DNA from: a virus
IMG/VR virus record: IMGVR_UViG_3300036466_000044
Span: 1-26,192 of that record
Direction: 5' to 3' (one strand)
Length of the DNA stretch: 26,192 nucleotides
Position numbers and translations under genes: made by a program. Below the pieces are notes generated by a model, which saw nothing but the letters and a program-made list of their open reading frames with translations, had not been told where the DNA came from and made no database searches. Shown one piece after another: positions 6,631 to 25,944 of this stretch (its first letter is position 1; the number at the start of each line of letters is the position of its first letter).

Positions 6631-7506
6631 TTATCTTCCTCTTGCTGCATTGGTTATACCATTTAGGACATCCACTGCAACATCTTCACTAGGTGCATCT
6701 ATTTGGATGTATTGAGTGACATTTGCTGCGGGTTGTGCTTTTGGTGTGTCAGAACCGAAGAACGTTTTAGCTAAGTAAGCTGGAGGAGAATATTCCCAAC
6801 CTAAATGACTTAATTTTACAACATCGCGTAGTATCCCTAAGTCCATAGGTCTAGATTGTTCACTCATAAGGTTACCATCTTTACGGTAAAGTTTAGATTG
6901 AGTCATATTCTTTATGTTCAGCTGTTCACCCATAGCTAATTCTATATTACCAACAAGTTTATCACTGAATAAAGAGGAAATCTCTTCCAATCCTGCAACT
7001 GCTGCTGTTATAGGTAAGAAAGCGGTTCTAATGGCAAGACCCAACCCCCCAAAGGCTACCGTTAACCTAGATAAGCTTGCCAACATGAAACCTCCTGTGA
7101 GGAGTTCTAAGTTTGACACAACGGCTGCTAGTAAGGGTTCAATAACTCTTAGGATGTGTGCGATACCTTTGAAAACTCTTCCAAAAGTGGCACCTAATTT
7201 AGCTAAGGCTTCTTCATTATCCTTGAATATTTCGGATAATGTTCCATAAAGTTCAGATAATCCTTTTTCAAATCCTGAGTTGAAGATGGTTTTAGCAGAA
7301 CGTTGTACACTTGTTGCAAATTGTCCTTCTGTAACACGTAAACCTTTTAAGGCTAGTTCGTATGCTCCACCTTCGGTAGCAGACTTTTTAAATTCTTTAG
7401 CTACTTTTGGTAATACTTCTGCTGAAACAAGTTGACCTTGTTCCATCATTTTGAATAATTCGGCTTCTGAAACATTCAATGCTCTGCTGAATAATTGTAC
7501 AGCACC
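6631..7506 (-). CDS. Tape measure protein, exon 4 (C-terminal part)
   Basis: The last exon of the spliced tape measure gene, encoding residues 393-683. It begins GAVQLF and continues with the conserved RALNVSEAELFKMMEQGQ segment, where tape measure proteins normally read L-P-G-A after a G-Q-L-G motif. A run of hydrophobic helices follows (ILRVIEPLLAAVVSNLELL; GLGLAIRTAFLPITAAVAGL), as expected for the part that forms the membrane channel. A naive reading would start at ATG 7515, but those codons (MYK) belong to the intron: the exon begins after the terminal G of the intron at 7507. The full join is 10489-9375, 9080-9048, 7906-7879, 7506-6631 (2052 nt, 684 codons with stop). The gene is followed after six bases by the Dit-like gene. 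Confidence 0.9.
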   Translation of the reverse strand, partial: GAVQLFSRALNVSEAELFKMMEQGQLVSAEVLPKVAKEFKKSATEGGAYELALKGLRVTEGQFATSVQRSAKTIFNSGFEKGLSELYGTLSEIFKDNEEALAKLGATFGRVFKGIAHILRVIEPLLAAVVSNLELLTGGFMLASLSRLTVAFGGLGLAIRTAFLPITAAVAGLEEISSLFSDKLVGNIELAMGEQLNIKNMTQSKLYRKDGNLMSEQSRPMDLGILRDVVKLSHLGWEYSPPAYLAKTFFGSDTPKAQPAANVTQYIQIDAPSEDVAVDVLNGITNAARGR

Positions 7507-7878
7507 CTTGTACATTCAACAACTTACGTAACTAAGTTGCCAATTATTGCCTTCAACCAAACAATAACTTACACACTTCTCAGTGTGGGTAGATCATATC
7601 TTATACTACAGCATCACCTGTTTAGCATCCTCCCGTTTCGATTAGCCATTAACTTGCTAACCTACTCTACTCCCTTCCACCAAAAGGTGTGGTTTCGATG
7701 ACCGTTGATCGTTCTTCTCTTTTAAAGAAGCTTCGATGCTGATTGCCAATATTATTAAGATTTTTAGGGGGCGTTACTACATTTCTGTGTAATATCCTAC
7801 TTAATACTTAACTTGGGTTTCCAGCAGTTAAAGAGGTTTCTTCATCATTGATTTCGCAATGAGTACCCAGTGTTATTT
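7507..7878 (-). ncRNA. Group I intron C of the tape measure gene (no ORF)
   Basis: A 372-nt intron. The 5' splice site is TTACCT|AAATAA: exon UACCU pairs with the internal guide GGGUA at 7864-7868, with U.G at the splice site. The 3' end is GTACAAG|GGTGCT, giving codons LP then GAVQLF. Core elements: R at 7702-7714 (GAACGATCAACGG) and S at 7590-7602 (AAGATATGATCTA), which pair as P7 through GATCA/TGATC. A terminal hairpin (CAACTTA/TAAGTTG, about 7516-7543) precedes the 3' splice site and is nearly identical to one in intron B. No protein is encoded. The short open frames on the plus strand here are chance. Confidence 0.9.
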
Positions 7879-7906
7879 AGGTAATGAGTCGCCTAGCTGA
7901 TTTTTT
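7879..7906 (-). CDS. Tape measure protein, micro-exon 3 (28 nt)
   Basis: A 28-nt exon that completes Leu383 (TT|A) and encodes KNQLGDSLP, residues 384-392. It is recognised because tape measure proteins carry E-E-L-(R/K)-x-Q-L-G-x-x-L-P-G-A at this point; exon 2 supplies the EEL and exon 4 the GA. The left edge is set by the U.G of P1 for intron C and the right edge by the terminal G (7907) of intron B. Any other combination of G or U positions that I tried either hits a stop or breaks the motif. Confidence 0.88.
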
Positions 7907-9047
7907 CTTATATTATTCAACAACTTACGCTACTAAGTTGCCAGCACCTTTACGTGCATCTACAGGTCTCCCTGTAAGAATAGACTATATCTTCACCCTC
8001 AGCGTTACCTGTTTGGGGTTCCCCATTTCCCACACCAATCGCTTGTGCGGTATGCCTTGTCACAGGACTTACTAGTCGTTGAGCTTTACTCTAGAAAAAT
8101 TTATCTGAGATTTCTTTGAATCTTATCTTATGTCTGATTCTCTTTACTTCGATGACTTTCATATTATCGTCAGGGCATTGCTTAGCAATATTTATATCGG
8201 AAACACCCTTGTTGATACCCTCACAAACAAAATTCACTGTTTCAAAAGAAAAATCTTGTTTAAACTTGTGAGGGATATCGTACAACTTTCTTATGTGAAA
8301 ATAGGTACTTCCTGTTTTTAATTTATTTATTGCATCCCTAGATGTATTAAACTCTTCTGCTAAATCAGTAGGTTTGTCACCACCCATTAATCTTATACAC
8401 AGAGTATGTACCAACTCTTCTGTAAAAGATGCGTTATATAGGCTATCACCAAAGTTACCTTCCAGAGTACAACCGTGTTGATTATTTTTAGCTAAAGTAG
8501 TCCATTCTAAGTTACTAATGTGGTTGTTAAGCTTATCCCCGTCTATATGGTTAACCGTATCTTTACTTTCGGGGTCATCATTAGGTAACCAAGCTTGTGC
8601 TATGAGTCTGTGCAATCTGACATTTTGAGCCTTATTACCGTGACTAGTGCGGACATACCAGTACTCAGGTACACCCCTTAAGTTAGGGGTTAGCTGAGTC
8701 TTCTTATCTAACCTGTAAACTTTACCAGACTCTGTTACACCATAATTAGGGTAGTACTTACATTGTCTTACTAATTCATCATCTATATATTGGTCTGCGA
8801 CTTTAATAAATTCATCGTAGTTCTTTACTTGTAATCTCATTAATTATCTCCCCTAGAGTCTTAGTTGCGGATTGTGTCTATTATTGACGTTATTACCTTA
8901 CCATAAAAAGTTACTTCTATGTGCCTTATATTATCACTAATACTGGCGGTAGTCAATACCTAACAACATATCCCCGCAATTAGAGGAATTTTACCATTAG
9001 TGTTTCCACTAAAAAGAGTCAAAAAACTTGTTTAAAAACAATAACAT
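7907..9047 (-). ncRNA. Group I intron B of the tape measure gene, carries HNH endonuclease gene
   Basis: A 1141-nt intron. The 5' splice site is GAAGAGTT|ATGTT: exon GAAGAGUU pairs over eight positions with the guide GACUCUUU at 9013-9020, ending in U.G. The 3' end is ATATAAG|AAAAAA. Core elements in order: P (AATTGCGGGGA, 8971-8981), Q (AATCCGCAACTAAG, 8860-8873; GCGG/CCGC form P4), R (CTCAACGACTAG, 8072-8083) and S (GAAGATATAGTCT, 7982-7994; GACTA/TAGTC form P7). The endonuclease gene lies between Q and R, that is, in the P6 region. About 100 nt between P and Q (8874-8970) form an enlarged P5 region without a gene. Confidence 0.92.
8091..8840 (-). CDS. Intron-encoded HNH homing endonuclease (NUMOD4-HNH)
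   Basis: A 249-residue protein within intron B. Residues 28-45 (YYPNYGVTESGKVYRL) are the NUMOD4 motif. Residues 75-122 form the HNH domain: LHRLIAQAWLPN with His77, TVNHIDGDKLNN with His98, and SNLEW, the set typical of phage HNH homing enzymes. The C-terminal 110 residues look like helix-turn-helix DNA-binding repeats (PTDLAEEFNTSRDAINKL; SDINIAKQ). ATG at 8840 has GGGGAG seven bases upstream. The product would cut intron-minus tape measure genes near the insertion site and so spread the intron. The gene is complete with intact motifs, so activity is plausible. Confidence 0.93.
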   Translation of the reverse strand: MRLQVKNYDEFIKVADQYIDDELVRQCKYYPNYGVTESGKVYRLDKKTQLTPNLRGVPEYWYVRTSHGNKAQNVRLHRLIAQAWLPNDDPESKDTVNHIDGDKLNNHISNLEWTTLAKNNQHGCTLEGNFGDSLYNASFTEELVHTLCIRLMGGDKPTDLAEEFNTSRDAINKLKTGSTYFHIRKLYDIPHKFKQDFSFETVNFVCEGINKGVSDINIAKQCPDDNMKVIEVKRIRHKIRFKEISDKFF

Positions 9048-9080
9048 AACTCTTCTGCCATTACTTTCCCTTTTGACATC
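9048..9080 (-). CDS. Tape measure protein, micro-exon 2 (33 nt)
   Basis: A 33-nt exon: G completes Met372 (AT|G), then MSKGKVMAEE (373-382), then TT of Leu383. S-K-G-K-V-x-A-E-E-L is the hallmark motif of the N-terminal conserved region of tape measure proteins, and it is absent from the two large fragments of the gene. It lies between the terminal G of intron A (9081) and the P1 U.G of intron B (9048). Because its length is a multiple of three, skipping it would keep the frame. Confidence 0.9.
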
Positions 9081-9374
9081 CAATACCTTCGAACAAGTAC
9101 GTTACCTCTTGCCCCGCAAATCCTTATTGCAGCTCTATATCGCTATAGAAGTTGAGACCATATCTTCACCCTCAGCCTTACCTGTTTGGGGTTGTGCGCT
9201 TCCACTCACTTGAGTGTACAGATTTCATAAACCTTTAAGGTTCGTTTATCTTGGTCGTTACACCTTGGAAAGAATTACTTCTAACCCTTGGCTCGGCATA
9301 ATCTACAAGAGAGTTCCACCGAATTCACACAATTTGTTCATGCTTATTACTAAGCAGCCAGACAATAATCGTCT
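9081..9374 (-). ncRNA. Group I intron A of the tape measure gene (no ORF)
   Basis: A 294-nt intron. The 5' splice site is CCAGAT|AGACG: exon CCAGAU pairs perfectly with the guide GUCUGG at 9358-9363 with U.G at the splice site. The 3' end is GGTATTG|GATGTC. The core contains AATTCGGTGGAA (P), ATGCCGAGCCAAG (Q), R (GTGTAACGACCA, 9252-9263) and S (GAAGATATGGTCTC, 9154-9167), with P7 formed by GACCA/TGGTC. The 3' half shares almost 40 bases with intron B around S. No gene is encoded, so this intron may move only together with its neighbours. Confidence 0.92.
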
Positions 9375-10489
9375 ATCTGGATCAAGGCTTTCTGACTTCG
9401 CTTCATGCTTTCATCATCTACCTTCAATGCTGTCCCGAACATACTCAATCCTGTGAATAAGTCCTCTTGTTCCGTTTGGGAAATTTTTCCTTTTGATGCA
9501 AATTTAAACTTAACGAAAGCGTCTGTAGTATCTTTCAAACTAAGACCCATTTCATCAACTATTCCATTTATGAACATCATATCTTTTGCAGCAGCTTCCG
9601 AACTACCACTTGCCGCAAGCATAGATGCCTCCATTCCCTGAAAGTCTTGTCCTACCCGCTTAATAGCAGTAGTCCCTTCAAAAATAGCATATAAGCTTGC
9701 ATAACTACGAATCATATTCCTTGTTGAATCGGTTAGACCTTTTTGGGCAATGTTAGTCTTCCTTAAACTCTTACGATAACGAGTCATATTTTCACGAACA
9801 TTAGTCATCTCGTAGCGAAGTTTTCTTAACCCTTCTAAGTCTTTATTATCTACTAAACGTTGTATTTCCTTGTCATACTTACCACTTTCGCCCATACGCC
9901 CCGCAAGTTTAAAACCTGCTGTCCTACGTATCATATCTGCCTGTTTATCCATTGCCTCTGAAAACTTACGTTCCTTTTGTTTAGAAGCTTTAAAAGCTTG
10001 TAGGCGCTTGTTTAATGACTGCCTGTAAGAGTCTTCCTCTTTCCTACGATCATCTTCCCTTTGTCTTTTTAAAGCAGCTCTACGTTTTTGCTTATCAACC
10101 CACCGCTTCCTTTCCATTTCAGAAAGTTTTGCAGACTGTTTAGCTTCTTCTTTGAAACTCTTTTCAAAAACACTTGCACTGCTTTGGGCGCTTTTGTTTG
10201 AAAGCTGGTTATTTGGCATAAGAGAACTAATTTTCTCTCTACGTTCCCATGCCTTACGAGCCTTCTCAGCTTGTATTTTACTATCCCTACCGTATGTTGC
10301 CTCATCCTTGAGTTTCTTTGCCAGCATTGTTTTGTGTGCTTTATTTTCCACTTTTGCATTGGTTGTAGCACGTTTAACTTGTTTCTTTCCTATACCGTCA
10401 AGGAGTTTATCAATCTCTTGAGCACCCTTTTTAGCTTCCTTAGAATCGGTGAGAAACTTTATTACAAATTCTTCAATTATATTAGACAT
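9375..10489 (-). CDS. Tape measure protein, exon 1 (N-terminal part)
   Basis: First exon of the tape measure gene, residues 1-371 plus two bases of codon 372. The N-terminal 200 residues are highly charged and coiled-coil-like (KAEKARKAWERREKISSL; KRQREDDRRKEEDSYRQ). The conserved tape-measure region follows (ASLYAIFEGTTAIKRVGQDFQGMEA, then a MLAASGS loop and ALKVDDESMKRSQKALIQ). An open frame continues to 9350, but its last residues (DDYCLAA) are intron translation. The spliced protein has 683 residues, rather short for a tape measure, implying a tail of roughly 100 nm if the usual 1.5 angstrom per residue holds. The start at 10489 has a weak AAGG about 11 bases upstream. Confidence 0.9.
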
Positions 10490-10543: not shown

Positions 10544-10801
10544 TTAATCTTTTGGCTTAGTGTCCTCATAATGAGCAATTTCATAATCTTGTTGCATTAG
10601 CATTTCTTCTTCATAATGAAGGTAATCTTCTATACAAGACTCGTACATAAGCTCATTGTAACTTATGCCATAATTCTTCCATGCATACTTTGCTACAGTG
10701 TTTTGGTAAAGTCTTTCTGAGTCTAAAGCAGAGGTCTTTTCCACATGGTTATCCACTATGCGTCTGTGTGTTGCATTACCTTCGACAGAATTCCTTTCCA
10801 T
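10544..10801 (-). CDS. Tail assembly chaperone, frameshift extension (GT-like)
   Basis: An 85-codon frame from an ATG at 10801 that in fact stays open upstream to the slippery site at 10825-10831. There is no ribosome site before the ATG, and the frame is -1 relative to the upstream chaperone gene. This is the arrangement of lambda G/GT and of many phages, where a -1 ribosomal shift adds a C-terminal domain to a fraction of the chaperone. The predicted long product has 131 residues of the upstream frame plus 93 of this one, about 224 in total. The extension is acidic and Tyr-rich (SYNELMYESCIEDYLHYEEE). It precedes the tape measure gene, as expected for a factor that recruits tube subunits onto the tape measure. 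Confidence 0.82.
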   Translation of the reverse strand: MERNSVEGNATHRRIVDNHVEKTSALDSERLYQNTVAKYAWKNYGISYNELMYESCIEDYLHYEEEMLMQQDYEIAHYEDTKPKD

Positions 10802-11217
10802 GATCGGGTTATAGCGTTTTCTGTAAAAAAACCTTTGAAGTTTTCCTCCAACATGAACATGATTAATTCCATAAATAATTCTGGACTACCTTGGAAATCT
10901 TGATCTAAGTCTTTATACGTGTTGAAAGTAACACCTTCATCATTACTACAGCCCATAAGCATCTTACTAATAAGCTCATCAATTTCTGGTTTATCCAAAT
11001 CATAGGCAATCATTTTCATAACATCTTTAAAAGTACTACTCTTCTGGAAAGCTGCATACTCTTCATCAACGTTCTTACTATCTAACATTTCACCCATAAC
11101 TGGGGCAATAGTTTTTAAAAGCGTACGACTACCTTTAAAAGCATCCATTGTACCAAGTAGTACGATTGTGTAAGTTTTATCTCCGATCTGTTTCTTACGT
11201 GTGGGTAATTTCATCAT
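10756..11217 (-). CDS. Tail assembly chaperone (G-like)
   Basis: A 153-residue acidic, helical protein between tail tube and tape measure genes. It starts with a basic strand region (LPTRKKQIGDKTYTIVLLG) and contains the SRTLLKTIAPVMGEML segment that resembles the R-x-x-L-L-x-x-L-x-P pattern of myophage tail assembly chaperones. ATG at 11217 (a second ATG follows directly) lies about nine bases after GAGG. Codons 129-131 (GGT TTT TTT) form the slippery site for the extension described separately. The assignment rests on order, size and the frameshift arrangement. Confidence 0.8.
   Translation of the reverse strand: MMKLPTRKKQIGDKTYTIVLLGTMDAFKGSRTLLKTIAPVMGEMLDSKNVDEEYAAFQKSSTFKDVMKMIAYDLDKPEIDELISKMLMGCSNDEGVTFNTYKDLDQDFQGSPELFMELIMFMLEENFKGFFTENAITRSWKGILSKVMQHTDA
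10825..10831 (-). promoter_or_regulatory. -1 ribosomal frameshift site (T TTT TTT)
   Basis: Seven T residues placed in the zero frame as GG-T TTT TTT ACA. This fits the X XXY YYZ rule, and a -1 slip enters the downstream open frame, which has no stop until 10544. Confidence 0.75.
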
Positions 11218-15705: not shown

Positions 15706-15733
15706 TTGACACTAGGTTTCATAATGTTAAAAT
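15706..15733 (+). promoter_or_regulatory. Sigma-70-type promoter of the moron gene
   Basis: TTGACA at 15706-15711, 16-base spacer, TAAAAT at 15728-15733. It faces right, against the structural operon, and lies 28 bases before the start codon of the only plus-strand gene. Confidence 0.72.
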
Positions 15734-15761
15734 GCCCCCCTTTAAAATAAGGAGACTATTT

Positions 15762-16106
15762 ATGAATTTTGATGTTAAAGAAAGTGTCTTAACTTTTGAC
15801 AAAACAATCCAAGTCGCTAAAGGAGATAAAACTTTTCCTTATCTTACTTTGTTGAAATTGGATAACTATTGTTACATAGTGTGTCATGTTAAGAACAAAA
15901 TACCCTCTAAGAAGGAACTTCTTTCTGGGAAAGGATATTCTGAGAAGGGGTATAGTTGGGAAATGACCTCTGATCGGGAATATAACACTATTAAGAAAGG
16001 TATCACTTGCTTACAAAATAACCCCGCTCATGGTATTATTACATTCAGCTATTTATTAGGTTATTGCGAGGCGTGTGGTGTTGACCTATTGGATTATTTA
16101 GATTAA
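15762..16106 (+). CDS. Plus-strand 'moron' protein of unknown function (114 aa)
   Basis: The only convincing plus-strand gene. ATG at 15762 has AAGGAG seven bases upstream. The frame is open further upstream (to 15732), but that would place the start over the promoter -10 box. The product is a small soluble protein: MNFDVKESVLTFDKTIQVAKGD, a strand-rich middle (YLTLLKLDNYCYIVCHVKN), a Lys/Gly-rich loop, and a helical end with two cysteines (LGYCEACGVDLLDYLD). No signal peptide or membrane segment. I recognise no family. A promoter, one gene and a terminator inserted in opposite orientation between head genes is the classic layout of a moron, which often serves in superinfection exclusion, anti-defence or host modification. 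That role is inferred from layout only. Confidence 0.85.
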   Translation: MNFDVKESVLTFDKTIQVAKGDKTFPYLTLLKLDNYCYIVCHVKNKIPSKKELLSGKGYSEKGYSWEMTSDREYNTIKKGITCLQNNPAHGIITFSYLLGYCEACGVDLLDYLD

Positions 16107-16682: not shown

Positions 16683-18128
16683 TCACATTCCGTGTAATGA
16701 CTTTTGGTATTCTTGTTGTAAGATATCCTTTATCTTATGGTAATCTGCGTGACTGTAACATTCTGTCCAACCATCACTGAATTTTTCTCTATCAACTGTA
16801 ACTCTATCGAACAAGGGTTTCAACATAGCTTCAATTGCAGGAGGAGTTTCTCCGTTTTCAAAGTGATACTCGTCTAAGATAATACCTTCGTAATCTTTAC
16901 TATTTCTACTTTGATTTTCTAATCGGGTTATTGCACCAAGATTGGTTATACCTACTTTTAGAAAACTGGGTTCACCTGTTAAAGTGTTCAACCATATAGA
17001 AATGTAAATACTTCCTGCAAGGTGTGACTTGTAACCATTAGCTTTGCAACAAGGACAACCTTTACCTAGTCTTACGTTACTATAAGCAATAGGGAACGGT
17101 TTATTAGTAACAGGGCAGAGGAATCTTATAGGAGTATTGTTATTGACATAGTCATCAATTCTTGTATAAAGTACACCCTTTGCTTTTAATTCGGCATCCA
17201 CTTCTTCATTAGTAAGTCTTTGTCTTTCACCAGCAAGTTTAGCACTACATTTAGAACAGAAGTGAGCTTTCTTGTATAAAGTTCTAGTACCTAAAGGTTG
17301 CATACCATGTTCTTCACAGAACACTTTGACAAACTTTTTGTTGAAATCTTCTCTAGTGACGTGTTCTGTAGGATAATTACGTTCTTCCATTCTAAGTAAA
17401 AAATCTTTGTATCTGGTTTCGTTTATCTTATCTTGTTTAACACATCCGCAGGAGGATTTATGTATCTGGTTAGAACTTTTCATAAAGTAAATCTTATTTT
17501 TACATTTACATTCTATAAAATAACCTTCTACCCCTTCCCTAGATAAGCCCCTACCTAAGACTAAATTTCCATTCACCAAGTCACCAGAAAAATATTTTAA
17601 ACGTCTACCTTCTTCAGGTAAAAATTCTATATCTCCTAATTGATAAAACCTATCTACTCTTATGTGGTCACCCTTTTTAAGAGTCAATATTCTTTGTTTT
17701 TGAGCACATATTTGGCAACCATTACCGTGTTGGTGGTGATCTGCTACAATAGGGAAATAATCTTTGCATGTATTACAAAACACTTGAATAATTTCTCTCA
17801 CACCGTTTAAAGATGTGATTTCCGTGTAATCATACTTATCACCGTGGACGGATTTACATTTGTGTATAAAGTCTCCTACTTTTAAAAGTTTTTTGCTTAC
17901 CCTTATAGCTTCGTTACATTGTTTACAGGGTGTGACAGCTTTAGTGAATAAAGACCCGTGGTAAACTGTACCTACCACTCCATGTTCTTTACAAGTAACC
18001 TTTAAATCTTTATCCAACCACTTATAGATATCTACATCATATAAAGGGTAATCTGGGAAAGTATCTTCATACTTTTGTAAAAACTTCTTGTATCTGGTGG
18101 GGTGATTGTGTAATAATTCTCTCTTCAA
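16683..18128 (-). CDS. Free-standing endonuclease-like protein: zinc-finger repeats plus GIY-YIG-like domain
   Basis: A 481-residue protein inserted between the major capsid gene and the unknown gene. The first 330 residues contain several Cys/His-rich repeats of the DUF723-like type: V-x-C-x-x-H-G followed later by C-x-x-C (for example LKVTCKEHGVVG with CKQC, then KYDYTEI with CQIC, then VKVFCEEHGMQ with CSKC, then CPCC). After residue 365 comes GSIYISIWLNTL and FLKVGITNLGAITRLENQS, then a conserved acidic helix (PPAIEAMLKPLFD). This resembles the T5orf172/GIY-YIG-type nuclease fold (Y-I ... K-V-G-I-T ... R). A homing endonuclease role is likely but not proven. The start is TTG at 18128, ten bases after AAGGAG. 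Confidence 0.82.
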   Translation of the reverse strand: MKRELLHNHPTRYKKFLQKYEDTFPDYPLYDVDIYKWLDKDLKVTCKEHGVVGTVYHGSLFTKAVTPCKQCNEAIRVSKKLLKVGDFIHKCKSVHGDKYDYTEITSLNGVREIIQVFCNTCKDYFPIVADHHQHGNGCQICAQKQRILTLKKGDHIRVDRFYQLGDIEFLPEEGRRLKYFSGDLVNGNLVLGRGLSREGVEGYFIECKCKNKIYFMKSSNQIHKSSCGCVKQDKINETRYKDFLLRMEERNYPTEHVTREDFNKKFVKVFCEEHGMQPLGTRTLYKKAHFCSKCSAKLAGERQRLTNEEVDAELKAKGVLYTRIDDYVNNNTPIRFLCPVTNKPFPIAYSNVRLGKGCPCCKANGYKSHLAGSIYISIWLNTLTGEPSFLKVGITNLGAITRLENQSRNSKDYEGIILDEYHFENGETPPAIEAMLKPLFDRVTVDREKFSDGWTECYSHADYHKIKDILQQEYQKSLHGM

Positions 18129-23020: not shown

Positions 23021-24136
23021 TCATCGGATAGACTTGCGGTAAGAGGTGTAAGCTGTTGGAGAAGTGGTGTCTGGGAGGCTGTAGACGCGGATTACCCTTT
23101 CTTTGGATAGGAAGTTGTAAGCCGAAGCTATAGCATCTGCAAAGTCATCCTTTTTGGTTTTGGTTGATCTTTCACCATCAAAGTTTTCCAACTGTTTCAT
23201 TATATGGTTGTAAGTATTCTCTGAAAAAGTAGACTTAACTATCTTAATCAAACCATTCTCTGCACTTGTTGCAAAAGGTAAGAATTTGGTAAGTTTATTC
23301 TTTGTGATAGGCATAGGATCTTTTTTATAAATATAACCCTCTTCTGCAAAATACTTAGCTTGTTGTGCCCATAATGCCTTACCCGCAGCAGCAGGGTCTT
23401 GCGGGGAAATAAGGTAAACTTCTGAACCGTCAAATTCAGCTTGCTTCAACATTACTCTATCCCTCTCACCAGAACTGAGATACATTGCACCTTGGATGTC
23501 ATCTACTTTGTCATAAAAGTCTTCGTGATAGTCTCCCATTAAAGTATAATACCCATCTTTACTTTTGTGCATTTTTATACTTACTGTTGGATCGGGATTC
23601 TTATTTGACATAGTTCTTTCAGATGCTCCGAAATCGTATGCCCTAACAGTGAGACCATCCGTAGGTACTTTATCTACGTGGTCTATCCAATCACGCTTAA
23701 AGTATTTACTCCCGAATGCAAATTCTGCCCAACAACCATGTAAAAGTTGAGCTTTATCTATTTCATTCAAACCTTCTAGGAAGCCGAGGTACGCTGGGTT
23801 GCTCTCAATCATCGGAGGATTATCATAAATATTTGCACTCACGAAACTGAAAGATAGTATTAAGTTTTCCCAATCTTTTTCAGGGATATCAAATCTTGTA
23901 CCTAATTCTTCTCTGGTTTCTCCCCATACATATTCACCGTCTCTTTGTAGGAAATACCTAACTAAACCATCCTTTTTAGGGTCAGGGTATCCGTCCTCTG
24001 TCAAGTAGAATGAGATCATTTTCTTAATCTCATGAGAGGGTGACGGGTTACAAGAAATAACCATACGGGAAAAATGTTTTGATTGTGATCTGAGTCGAGA
24101 CATGAAGTATTCTATCTGACTCCATTCGAATTGTGT
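23021..24136 (-). CDS. Terminase large subunit, exon 3 (nuclease part)
   Basis: The last exon of the large terminase, 371 residues and a stop. It starts at ACA (24136) after the terminal G of the intron, giving GIDEG|TQFEW, the normal Walker B continuation. Residues 26-33 (VISCNPSP) are the coupling motif. The RNase H-like nuclease follows, with AYDFGASE (Asp168), SPQDPAA (Asp247) and KKDDFADAIASA (Asp330, Asp331 and Asp334) as the metal-binding set. It cuts the DNA concatemer during packaging. A naive gene call would start at TTG 24139, which is intron sequence. The gene ends 17 bases before the -35 of the portal promoter. Confidence 0.93.
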   Translation of the reverse strand, partial: TQFEWSQIEYFMSRLRSQSKHFSRMVISCNPSPSHEIKKMISFYLTEDGYPDPKKDGLVRYFLQRDGEYVWGETREELGTRFDIPEKDWENLILSFSFVSANIYDNPPMIESNPAYLGFLEGLNEIDKAQLLHGCWAEFAFGSKYFKRDWIDHVDKVPTDGLTVRAYDFGASERTMSNKNPDPTVSIKMHKSKDGYYTLMGDYHEDFYDKVDDIQGAMYLSSGERDRVMLKQAEFDGSEVYLISPQDPAAAGKALWAQQAKYFAEEGYIYKKDPMPITKNKLTKFLPFATSAENGLIKIVKSTFSENTYNHIMKQLENFDGERSTKTKKDDFADAIASAYNFLSKERVIRVYSLPDTTSPTAYTSYRKSIR

Positions 24137-24390
24137 CAATTGTGTTCAAAGATGTTTGCAAGTCATCTTCCGCCTATTGTGGCTGCTCTATGTCGCCATA
24201 GAAGTTCAGACTATATCATCACCTGTTCTAGGTGTCCCGCGCTTCCACAACCATTAGCTTGTTGTGTACTCCTTTTCAGGATAGTCGTTGCACGGTCTCT
24301 TTCGAGCTTCGCTCAGGATTACCTACTAGAGGCTTCCCCTGAATTCACGGGATTTGCTAAATGTATTCCTACATTAAGGGGCTACAATTA
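24137..24390 (-). ncRNA. Group I intron 2 of the terminase gene (Walker B site, no ORF)
   Basis: A compact 254-nt intron. The 5' splice site is GATGAGGGT|TAATTG: exon GGGU pairs with guide GCCC (24379-24382), U.G at the splice site. The 3' end is ACAATTG|ACACAA. All core elements are close to consensus: P (AATTCAGGGGAAGCC, 24331-24345), Q (AATCCTGAGC, 24311-24320), R (GTGCAACGACTA, 24282-24293) and S (GATATAGTCTGA, 24206-24217), with P7 formed by GACTA/TAGTC. Splicing joins codons GGT and ACA in frame. The short plus-strand frame over this intron is chance. Confidence 0.94.
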
Positions 24391-24726
24391 ACCCTCATCT
24401 ATACCAACAAAAGTCCATTGCAAACCTTGGGCATTTAGTTTACTTTGTTCTACATTTTCTGCTTGTTGATATTTTATCTTGGCACCATTATAACTACGCC
24501 TACCTTTCTCATCTTTAGTAGGAAATATAACTTCTAGGTCACCTGTTTTAATCTTTGGTCTTATATTATGAGGGAGCTGATTGTATATTCCACAACCTGT
24601 ACTAAATATACCACCTGCACCTTTTATCTGGGGATTAGTTCTACGGAACATTACCATTTCCGAATTGGGGTCATCTATTAACATTAAAGGGATCATTTGC
24701 AATAGATAACTTTTTCCTGAACCAGC
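24391..24726 (-). CDS. Terminase large subunit, exon 2 (ATPase part)
   Basis: A 336-nt exon of 112 codons. It begins AGSGKS, the end of the Walker A P-loop; the upstream glycines come from exon 1. It continues YLLQMIPLMLIDDPNSEMVM, FRRTNPQIKGAGGIF (usual 'R-k-t-x-x-x-l-r-x-s' element), the EVIFPTKDEKGRRSYNGAKI segment, and ends LQWTFVGIDEG, the Walker B motif with catalytic Asp-Glu. The open frame begins at ATG 24729, but that ATG is the last triplet of the intron. The stop seen at 24388 is the first intron codon. The motor ATPase drives DNA into the procapsid through the portal. Confidence 0.92.
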
Positions 24727-25056
24727 CATTTTCAGGATCGGTTTTAGAGGCGTTACTCTCTTTCCACAGTTTCCTGTGTTGTCGGATCATATCTTCTATG
24801 TTATAACATAGCCCTACGTTTGGAAGTCACTTGACTCCTACATCGTTACACTCATCACGATTGATCTCTACACCCATGAATTTAATCATTCGGCTCGATA
24901 TTAGCTTATGCATCACACTTAGCCTTCATCGAATTAGCAGGGTTATTTAATGTGGAACCACTGGATTTTTAAGCTCCACCTATAATTGTCACCTGTGTAT
25001 CAGAAGCCCTTTTAAGAATAAGAGCTTGCTTCTCGCTGGCGGGTTTGAAGAGCGGT

Positions 25057-25944
25057 TCACTCTTCTTTTTCTTTGTCATTCTTTTTATCCTTTATTAATC
25101 TATTATATTTAATACCTAATTCTTTCCTTTTACTTTGTACTGTTGTTCTTGATAAGTTTAGTAAAGATGAAACTTGTTTAGTAGTTAAACTTGTATCTTT
25201 TATTAAAAATAATTCAGCTTCTGTCCACTCTCTTTTGGAAACCCAAGACCCTTGTTTTACAGCAGGAATATTAAGTTCCCTTCTTTTACTAGTTACACGA
25301 GTTAAAGGGATATTGAATTTTTCCGATAAACTGGAATCACTTTCTATACCTAGTAAGTTTACAAGTTCTTTAGAGAGATTATATTCGGGAGATTTGAATT
25401 TGGGGATTTTTAATAACTTCCTCCTATCACTTATAGAAGAAGTGGATATACTTATAAAATTAGACAGGTCTTTATCAGACATAGTACCTAGTAGGTTATC
25501 GTGATCTGTCCAATCGAACTTATTAGCTTTTACGTAGGAAGGTATTCCTGCCCCTTTTCTTCTACTGGAAACTATATCAATACTGGTACTTGTCTTTTCC
25601 GCTACAACTCTATCGGGATACTTTCCTAAAAGTTTATTCCATCCATCTTTCCATTTAACTTTAGTTGCACCATCACCTCCTAATGTGATATTATACCCAT
25701 TAGGTGACACAGTGTTGAATTTTTCTATGGCCTTCACTTCTAACTCATCTATGTACTTGTCTTCTCCACAAACTAGCAAGTCGAAGATAAAGGTATCAGA
25801 CCCGTACTTCTTAATTGCACTTTTAAGGACACTGCAGTTAGTATTCATACTTTTGTGCTGTGACCATCTTCTTTCAGGATCTATAGTAACACCTATGTAC
25901 ATTTTATTGTTTAAGGTGTTGGTAATCTTATACAACCACTTCAA
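25057..25944 (-). CDS. Intron-encoded GIY-YIG homing endonuclease
   Basis: A 295-residue protein within terminase intron 1. Residues 1-90 are a GIY-YIG domain: LYKITNTLNNKMYIG (Tyr5, Tyr16-Ile-Gly), Arg25/Arg26 and His30 in RRWSQHK, Glu69 in ELEVKAIEKF, and GYNITLGG. The first 'GIY' reads W-L-Y, a tolerated variant. Residues 100-285 hold four repeats of about 45 residues of the type 'L-L-G ... S-x-x-x-I ... K-R-R-E-L-x-I-P', which look like helix-turn-helix or Myb-like DNA-binding units. The start is TTG at 25944, five bases after GAGGAG. A sigma-70-like promoter lies about 50 bases upstream. It probably cleaves intronless terminase genes at the P-loop sequence. Confidence 0.92.
   Translation of the reverse strand: MKWLYKITNTLNNKMYIGVTIDPERRWSQHKSMNTNCSVLKSAIKKYGSDTFIFDLLVCGEDKYIDELEVKAIEKFNTVSPNGYNITLGGDGATKVKWKDGWNKLLGKYPDRVVAEKTSTSIDIVSSRRKGAGIPSYVKANKFDWTDHDNLLGTMSDKDLSNFISISTSSISDRRKLLKIPKFKSPEYNLSKELVNLLGIESDSSLSEKFNIPLTRVTSKRRELNIPAVKQGSWVSKREWTEAELFLIKDTSLTTKQVSSLLNLSRTTVQSKRKELGIKYNRLIKDKKNDKEKEE

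What the first reader, a model, noticed from the sequence alone, without database searches (positions are those of the whole stretch)
6631..10489. Tape measure gene with three group I introns and two micro-exons (33 and 28 nt)
Seen in sequence: each of the three introns has a P1 helix ending in U.G (CCAGAU/GUCUGG, GAAGAGUU/GACUCUUU, UACCU/GGGUA), a terminal G, and matching R/S (P7) elements. Splicing restores a single frame of 683 codons, and the junctions rebuild the conserved tape-measure motif MSKGKVMAEEL-KNQLGDSLP-GAVQLF, which is split over four exons. Established: a phage gene with three group I introns was described in staphylococcal phage Twort. Inference: this is an independent case in a tape measure gene of a myophage with a lambda-type capsid module. 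Standard annotation would give two unlinked fragments and lose 61 bases of coding sequence.
Basis: partly seen in the sequence, partly recalled or inferred. Interest (0 to 1): 0.9.

Follow-up and report, generated by a model that had tools for sequence, protein, structure and literature searches.

The report
Three self-splicing introns in tail gene
This virus of marine bacteria has its tail-length gene cut into four pieces, two of them tiny, by three RNA segments predicted to splice themselves out; the same arrangement was already shown by experiment in the cholera phage ICP1, but comparing 32 related viruses shows that one 75-base stretch of this gene is an intron hotspot, with up to five introns and coding pieces as short as 8 bases.

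Summary
On the minus strand the tape measure gene has exons 9375-10489, 9048-9080 (33 nt), 7879-7906 (28 nt) and 6631-7506, with introns of 294, 1141 and 372 nt; splicing gives 683 codons plus a stop. A spliced alignment to a profile of intronless homologues recovers the same junctions. Pfam TMP_3 rises from 32.6 and 20.2 bits (separate ORFs) to 82.4 bits when spliced; profile positions 100-119, missing from both ORFs, are what the micro-exons encode. Rfam group I matches (E = 8e-12, 2e-10, 2e-5), P1 helices with U.G, covariation including P7, and intron-free relatives agree. Splicing of this phage's RNA is inferred, not measured.

"Independent case" does not hold. [quoted passage not shown] The window is a new member of a known kind.

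What looks new is the family pattern: 64 introns in 32 tape measure genes sit at only nine sites within 75 nt of the most conserved motif. Phage H101 has five introns; the shortest exon is 8 nt. Two more group I introns split the window's terminase gene.

The parts
9375..10489 (-). tape measure gene exon 1 (1115 nt)
   Evidence: homology to TMPs; Pfam TMP_3 profile 5-99
9081..9374 (-). group I intron 1 (294 nt, no ORF), phase 2
   Evidence: RF00028 52.1 bits; 98% identical to the J2-1 intron at the same site
9358..9363 (-). internal guide sequence GUCUGG of intron 1, pairs with exon-1 end CCAGAU (P1, U.G)
   Evidence: sequence; 6 contiguous pairs, poor pairing with the other exons
9048..9080 (-). 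micro-exon 2 (33 nt)
   Evidence: spliced alignment; empty-site comparison
7907..9047 (-). group I intron 2 (1141 nt) carrying the HNH gene, phase 2; same insertion point as ICP1's middle intron
   Evidence: RF00028 30.4 bits for the 3' part; 91% over 167 nt to the H101 intron without HNH gene at the same site
9013..9020 (-). internal guide sequence GACUCUUU of intron 2, pairs with exon-2 end GAAGAGUU
   Evidence: sequence and fold
8091..8840 (-). HNH homing endonuclease gene (249 aa) inside intron 2, in the P6/P6a region
   Evidence: Pfam HNH_3 29.8 bits; PHROG 59 E 2e-38; aligned against the intron of H101 that lacks it
7879..7906 (-). micro-exon 3 (28 nt)
   Evidence: spliced alignment; empty-site comparison
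7507..7878 (-). group I intron 3 (372 nt, no ORF), phase 0
   Evidence: RF00028 47.4 bits; 96% identical to HM1 at the same site; covariation
7864..7868 (-). internal guide sequence GGGUA of intron 3, pairs with exon-3 end UACCU
   Evidence: sequence; 5 contiguous pairs
6631..7506 (-). tape measure gene exon 4 (876 nt with stop)
   Evidence: homology to TMPs; Pfam TMP_3 profile 120-163
24972..25079 (-). large terminase exon 1 (MTKKKK...IIGGA), start inferred
   Evidence: tblastn with intronless terminases
24727..24971 (-). group I intron in terminase, at Walker A (GGA|AGSGKS)
   Evidence: RF00028 46.5 bits, E 1.7e-10; boundaries read by eye from homology
24391..24726 (-). large terminase exon 2
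   Evidence: tblastn
24137..24390 (-). group I intron in terminase, at the DEG|TQ motif
   Evidence: RF00028 92.3 bits, E 8.5e-23; boundaries read by eye from homology
23021..24136 (-). large terminase exon 3
   Evidence: Pfam Terminase_6C; tblastn

Best explanation
[quoted passage not shown] Each folds into a P1-P9 ribozyme, uses its own internal guide sequence to hold the end of the preceding exon (U.G at the cut), and removes itself by two transesterifications, so that 1115 + 33 + 28 + 876 nt are joined into one mRNA for a 683-residue tape measure protein. The middle intron carries an HNH endonuclease gene that probably cuts intron-free tape measure alleles during co-infection and copies the intron into them (homing). 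The introns cluster because homing favours the most conserved stretch of the gene: many phages' introns have entered the same 75 nt, leaving exons too short for gene finders. Shown here: exon and intron anatomy, ribozyme signatures, covariation, family-wide site sharing, and HNH gain or loss at fixed sites. Inferred: splicing in this phage, endonuclease activity, homing.
For: Independent spliced alignment gives the same junctions, with a shuffle null. Profile matches run through the junctions only after splicing. Rfam matches. P1 pairing is specific: own guide sequence pairs 6, 9 and 5 contiguous bases, foreign ones 1-3. Covariation including P3 and P7. Close relatives PH357 and u19935 have uninterrupted coding DNA at all three window sites, and u31523 and PT11-V22 have no introns in the motif; PT11-V22's whole genome has no RF00028 match. 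The homologous ICP1 gene splices as four exons by RNA-seq and RT-PCR, and the same program reproduces the published layout of ICP1 and of ICP1 M4, including which introns hold endonuclease genes. 52 of 64 introns have their best match at the same site in another phage, against a shuffled mean of 8.4 and maximum of 22.
Against: No RNA data exist for this phage. Intron 2 scores only 30 bits and intron 3 47 bits, both under the Rfam cut-off of 50. The intron 3 boundary could shift by 2 nt if the U/G rule is ignored.
Confidence: 0.94

Rival explanations
1. The gene is truly broken: two separate proteins are made (N-terminal 379 aa and C-terminal 294 aa) that work together, as some phage ribonucleotide reductases split by an endonuclease gene do.
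For: Both fragments are open reading frames with start codons, and records of relatives annotate them as two proteins.
Against: Both fragments lack profile positions 100-119, which the conserved micro-exons encode in frame. Exon DNA is conserved across phages whose introns lie at different sites. The homologue in ICP1 is spliced.
Confidence: 0.03
2. Alternative splicing: micro-exon 2 (33 nt, a multiple of 3) is sometimes skipped, giving two tape measure lengths, as exon skipping was reported for Twort.
For: Skipping exon 2 keeps the frame; exon skipping was reported for a Twort gene with three group I introns (cited in PMC11878797).
Against: Exon 1's end pairs with only 1 base of intron 2's guide sequence and 2 of intron 3's; the skipped residues are among the most conserved of the protein; skipping exon 3 or both breaks the frame.
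Confidence: 0.05
3. Assembly chimera or degenerate introns that no longer splice.
For: Environmental contig; two introns under the Rfam cut-off.
Against: A second contig is identical over 9,631 bases; cultured phages HM1, J2-1 and H101 have closely related introns at the same sites; both flanking exons are open and conserved.
Confidence: 0.03

Closest known systems
Vibrio phage ICP1 tape measure gene (gp79-gp81; PMC10448857, PMC9040626)
   Same: Homologous gene; four exons and three introns; HNH gene in the middle intron; middle intron at the same codon and phase (47.2). Splicing shown by RNA-seq and RT-PCR.
   Different: ICP1's outer introns are at sites 45.0 and 53.0, the window's at 36.2 and 57.0; ICP1's inner exons are predicted here at 8 and 16 nt (the paper's text gives no lengths), the window's are 33 and 28 nt.
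Pseudoalteromonas phages HM1, J2-1/SL20 and H101 (tape measure genes)
   Same: Same gene, overlapping intron sites; the window's introns are 96-99% identical to HM1 or J2-1 (sites 36.2, 57.0) and 91% over 167 nt to H101 (site 47.2).
   Different: HM1 and J2-1 have 45.0 in place of 47.2; J2-1 has 58.0 in place of 57.0; H101 has five introns. HM1 carries an endonuclease-sized insert in intron 1; H101 has no endonuclease gene in intron 47.2.
Staphylococcal phage Twort orf142 (Landthaler and Shub 1999; not readable here)
   Same: One phage structural gene with three group I introns (cited in PMC11878797, which calls it a tail tube gene).
   Different: Different gene and host group; no sequence comparison made here.
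Other multi-intron phage genes: Bastillevirinae DNA polymerase and terminase (PMC11878797); Pectobacterium phage CB7 terminase, DNA polymerase, NrdB (PMC7344957)
   Same: Group I introns in essential genes, in CB7 with HNH genes and splicing shown by RT-PCR.
   Different: Not the tape measure gene.

Membership tests
group I intron (RF00028) | Covariance model match over the whole model | tested here: met
   Intron 1 over the gathering score (52.1); intron 3 47.4 and intron 2 30.4 below it but with E 2e-10 and 2e-5 over the whole model
group I intron (RF00028) | P1 with U.G at the 5' splice site and terminal G | tested here: met
   All three introns; U.G invariant in 8 of 8 in the intron 3 family
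group I intron (RF00028) | P3-P8 core with P7 (R/S) pairing | tested here: met
   Intron 3 family: P7 100% paired with a compensatory change, P3 four of six pairs with changes on both sides. Introns 1 and 2: core read from the Rfam alignment and the H101 alignment only
group I intron (RF00028) | Guanosine-dependent self-splicing | not testable with these tools
   Needs in-vitro transcription and GTP labelling
mobile intron with homing endonuclease | Endonuclease gene inside the intron, present or absent at a fixed site | tested here: met
   HNH_3 gene in window intron 47.2; the H101 intron at the same site lacks it
mobile intron with homing endonuclease | Cutting of the intron-free allele | not testable with these tools
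   Needs purified protein or phage cross
ICP1-type multi-intron tape measure gene | Homologous tape measure protein, several group I introns in the TMP_3 / tape_meas_nterm motif | tested here: met
   Same gene order (sheath, tube, chaperone, TMP), sites map to the same motif, one site shared exactly
Twort orf142-type | Homologous gene | not tested
   Twort sequence was not fetched; the literature names orf142 a tail tube gene

The most novel reading that the evidence does not exclude
A 75-nt stretch of the tape measure gene is a recurrent landing zone for group I introns across marine myophages: nine distinct insertion sites, up to five introns in one gene (H101), and internal exons of 8, 11, 16 and 18 nt, so that several ribozymes must cut and join within tens of bases of each other. 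With an 8-nt exon the whole exon is about the length of the guide-pairing segment of the next intron, which may force an order of splicing.
Probability: 0.85. Interest if true: 0.68.

Novelty: new member of a known kind. Interest (0 to 1): 0.55.

Why it matters
Gene finders report such genes as two unrelated fragments and lose the best conserved part of the protein, so tape measure genes of this phage group are mis-annotated in public records. The hotspot gives a natural series of phages with zero to five introns in one motif, with which one can test how several group I ribozymes splice in order across exons of 8-40 nt, and why introns pile up at the most conserved codons.

Tried and rejected
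Split protein, exon skipping and assembly artefact: see rivals. A minor Rfam match to NRON (18 bits, gathering 50) inside intron 2 is chance. Introns called by the program near the ends of the profile (columns 3-18 and 87-93) or in low-scoring loci such as L045, L057, L121 and L085 were discarded as alignment artefacts. The first, gap-free mixed profile mis-placed introns in some Vibrio phages; three profiles by insertion type fixed this. Cross-site similarity of introns (for example J2-1 site 58.0 and u37962 site 33.0, 93% over 116 nt) hints at movement between sites but may lie in the conserved core, so it was not claimed as transposition. The Twort paper itself was not held.

Full report
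What was checked. The window is an IMG/VR virus fragment of 26,192 bases, closest to Pseudoalteromonas phages HM1 and J2-1 (genus Qingdaovirus; about 86% identity over about half the window). Late genes run on the minus strand. The claimed exons and introns were extracted: 1115 + 33 + 28 + 876 nt join into 2052 nt, 683 codons and a stop.

Independent test of the junctions. A profile was built from seven intronless tape measure proteins (PT11-V22, J2-1_QLiu-2017, VPMCC14, 1.170.O, K408, 1.121.O, PcCB7V), none of them from the intron-bearing phages tested. Without introns the score is 6, with them 219. With the block 7507-9374 shuffled the best of 100 runs reaches 186.5. Pfam TMP_3 matches the two annotated ORFs at 32.6 and 20.2 bits (cut-off 41) over profile positions 5-99 and 120-163; the spliced protein scores 82.4 over 5-163, so the micro-exons supply the missing 100-119. 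NCBIfam TIGR02675 is matched only by the spliced protein (41.5 bits). At DNA level, PH357 and u19935 have continuous coding sequence at all three window sites and u31523 has no intron in the motif at all.

Ribozymes. Rfam RF00028 finds all three introns (52.1, 30.4 and 47.4 bits). Each exon end pairs with its own guide sequence (6, 9 and 5 contiguous pairs) and poorly with the others (1-3), which argues for faithful joining. An alignment of intron 3 with seven related introns gives 98.7% standard pairs over 57 pairs, 27 pairs with changes on both sides, P7 included; sliding the partner strand by 1-3 columns gives 2-5 such pairs. Intron 2 aligns along its core to the H101 intron at the same site, which lacks the HNH gene; the gene sits in the P6 region.

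Known precedent. [quoted passage not shown] The program used here reproduces both layouts from sequence alone: ICP1 introns of 330, 1112 and 328 nt; M4 introns of 921, 372 and 990 nt. ICP1's middle intron is at the same codon and phase as the window's. The paper's text does not state exon lengths; here they come out as 8 and 16 nt.

Family survey. 32 intron-bearing tape measure genes from phage records and IMG/VR contigs hold 64 introns at only nine sites: 33.0, 36.2, 39.0, 45.0, 47.2, 51.1, 53.0, 57.0 and 58.0 (column.phase), all within 75 nt. Nine random sites would fall within 75 of the 288 nt scanned with P about 7e-5, and the stretch is the best conserved of the part examined (mean entropy 1.11 against 1.89 bits; P = 0.002 for the sites). 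These two figures treat sites as independent and rest on one alignment. H101 has five introns, each with its own Rfam match, and inner exons of 25, 8, 11 and 20 nt; CoeS_P1 and S4-7 have four, also with Rfam matches. For introns of most IMG/VR contigs no separate Rfam check was made. Introns are site-specific lineages: 52 of 64 have their best match at the same site in another phage (shuffled mean 8.4, maximum 22). That group I introns favour conserved positions is established (PMC2814812).

How it most likely works. Three self-splicing group I introns are removed from the late transcript; the HNH gene spreads its intron by homing. The clustering follows from homing to conserved DNA. Shown: anatomy and comparative evidence. 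Inferred: splicing here, homing.

Verdict. New member of a known kind, with a family-wide hotspot that I found no report of in the papers searched; most subscription papers were not searchable.

Noticed in passing
23021-25079: The large terminase gene is also split by two group I introns, at Walker A (GGA|AGSGKS) and at DEG|TQ; spliced length about 519 codons. The window thus holds five group I introns in two genes.
   Followed up: partly
25057-25944: GIY-YIG homing endonuclease gene just upstream of, and overlapping the start of, terminase exon 1: a free-standing endonuclease next to an intron-bearing terminase, as reported for ICP1 and called collaborative homing.
   Followed up: partly
16683-18128: 481-aa endonuclease-like ORF (PHROG 681, E 2e-45) next to the major capsid gene; a free-standing endonuclease candidate.
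   Followed up: no
10544-11217: Two overlapping tail chaperone-region ORFs before the tape measure gene (10756-11217 and 10544-10801), with TTTTTTA just upstream of the overlap: a candidate programmed frameshift.
   Followed up: no
L004:4828-5684: HM1's intron at site 36.2 is 99% identical to the window's over 219 nt but 563 nt longer: insertion or loss of an endonuclease-sized segment at a fixed intron site.
   Followed up: partly
L007:4388-6877: H101 tape measure gene: five group I introns and six exons, two of only 8 and 11 nt; the public record annotates fragments.
   Followed up: yes
L005:5784-6829 and L052:5067-5428: Introns at different sites (58.0 in J2-1, 33.0 in an IMG/VR phage) share 93% over 116 nt: possible movement between sites.
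   Followed up: partly
15732-16106: One plus-strand ORF of 124 aa among minus-strand late genes, only a weak PHROG match of unknown function.
   Followed up: no
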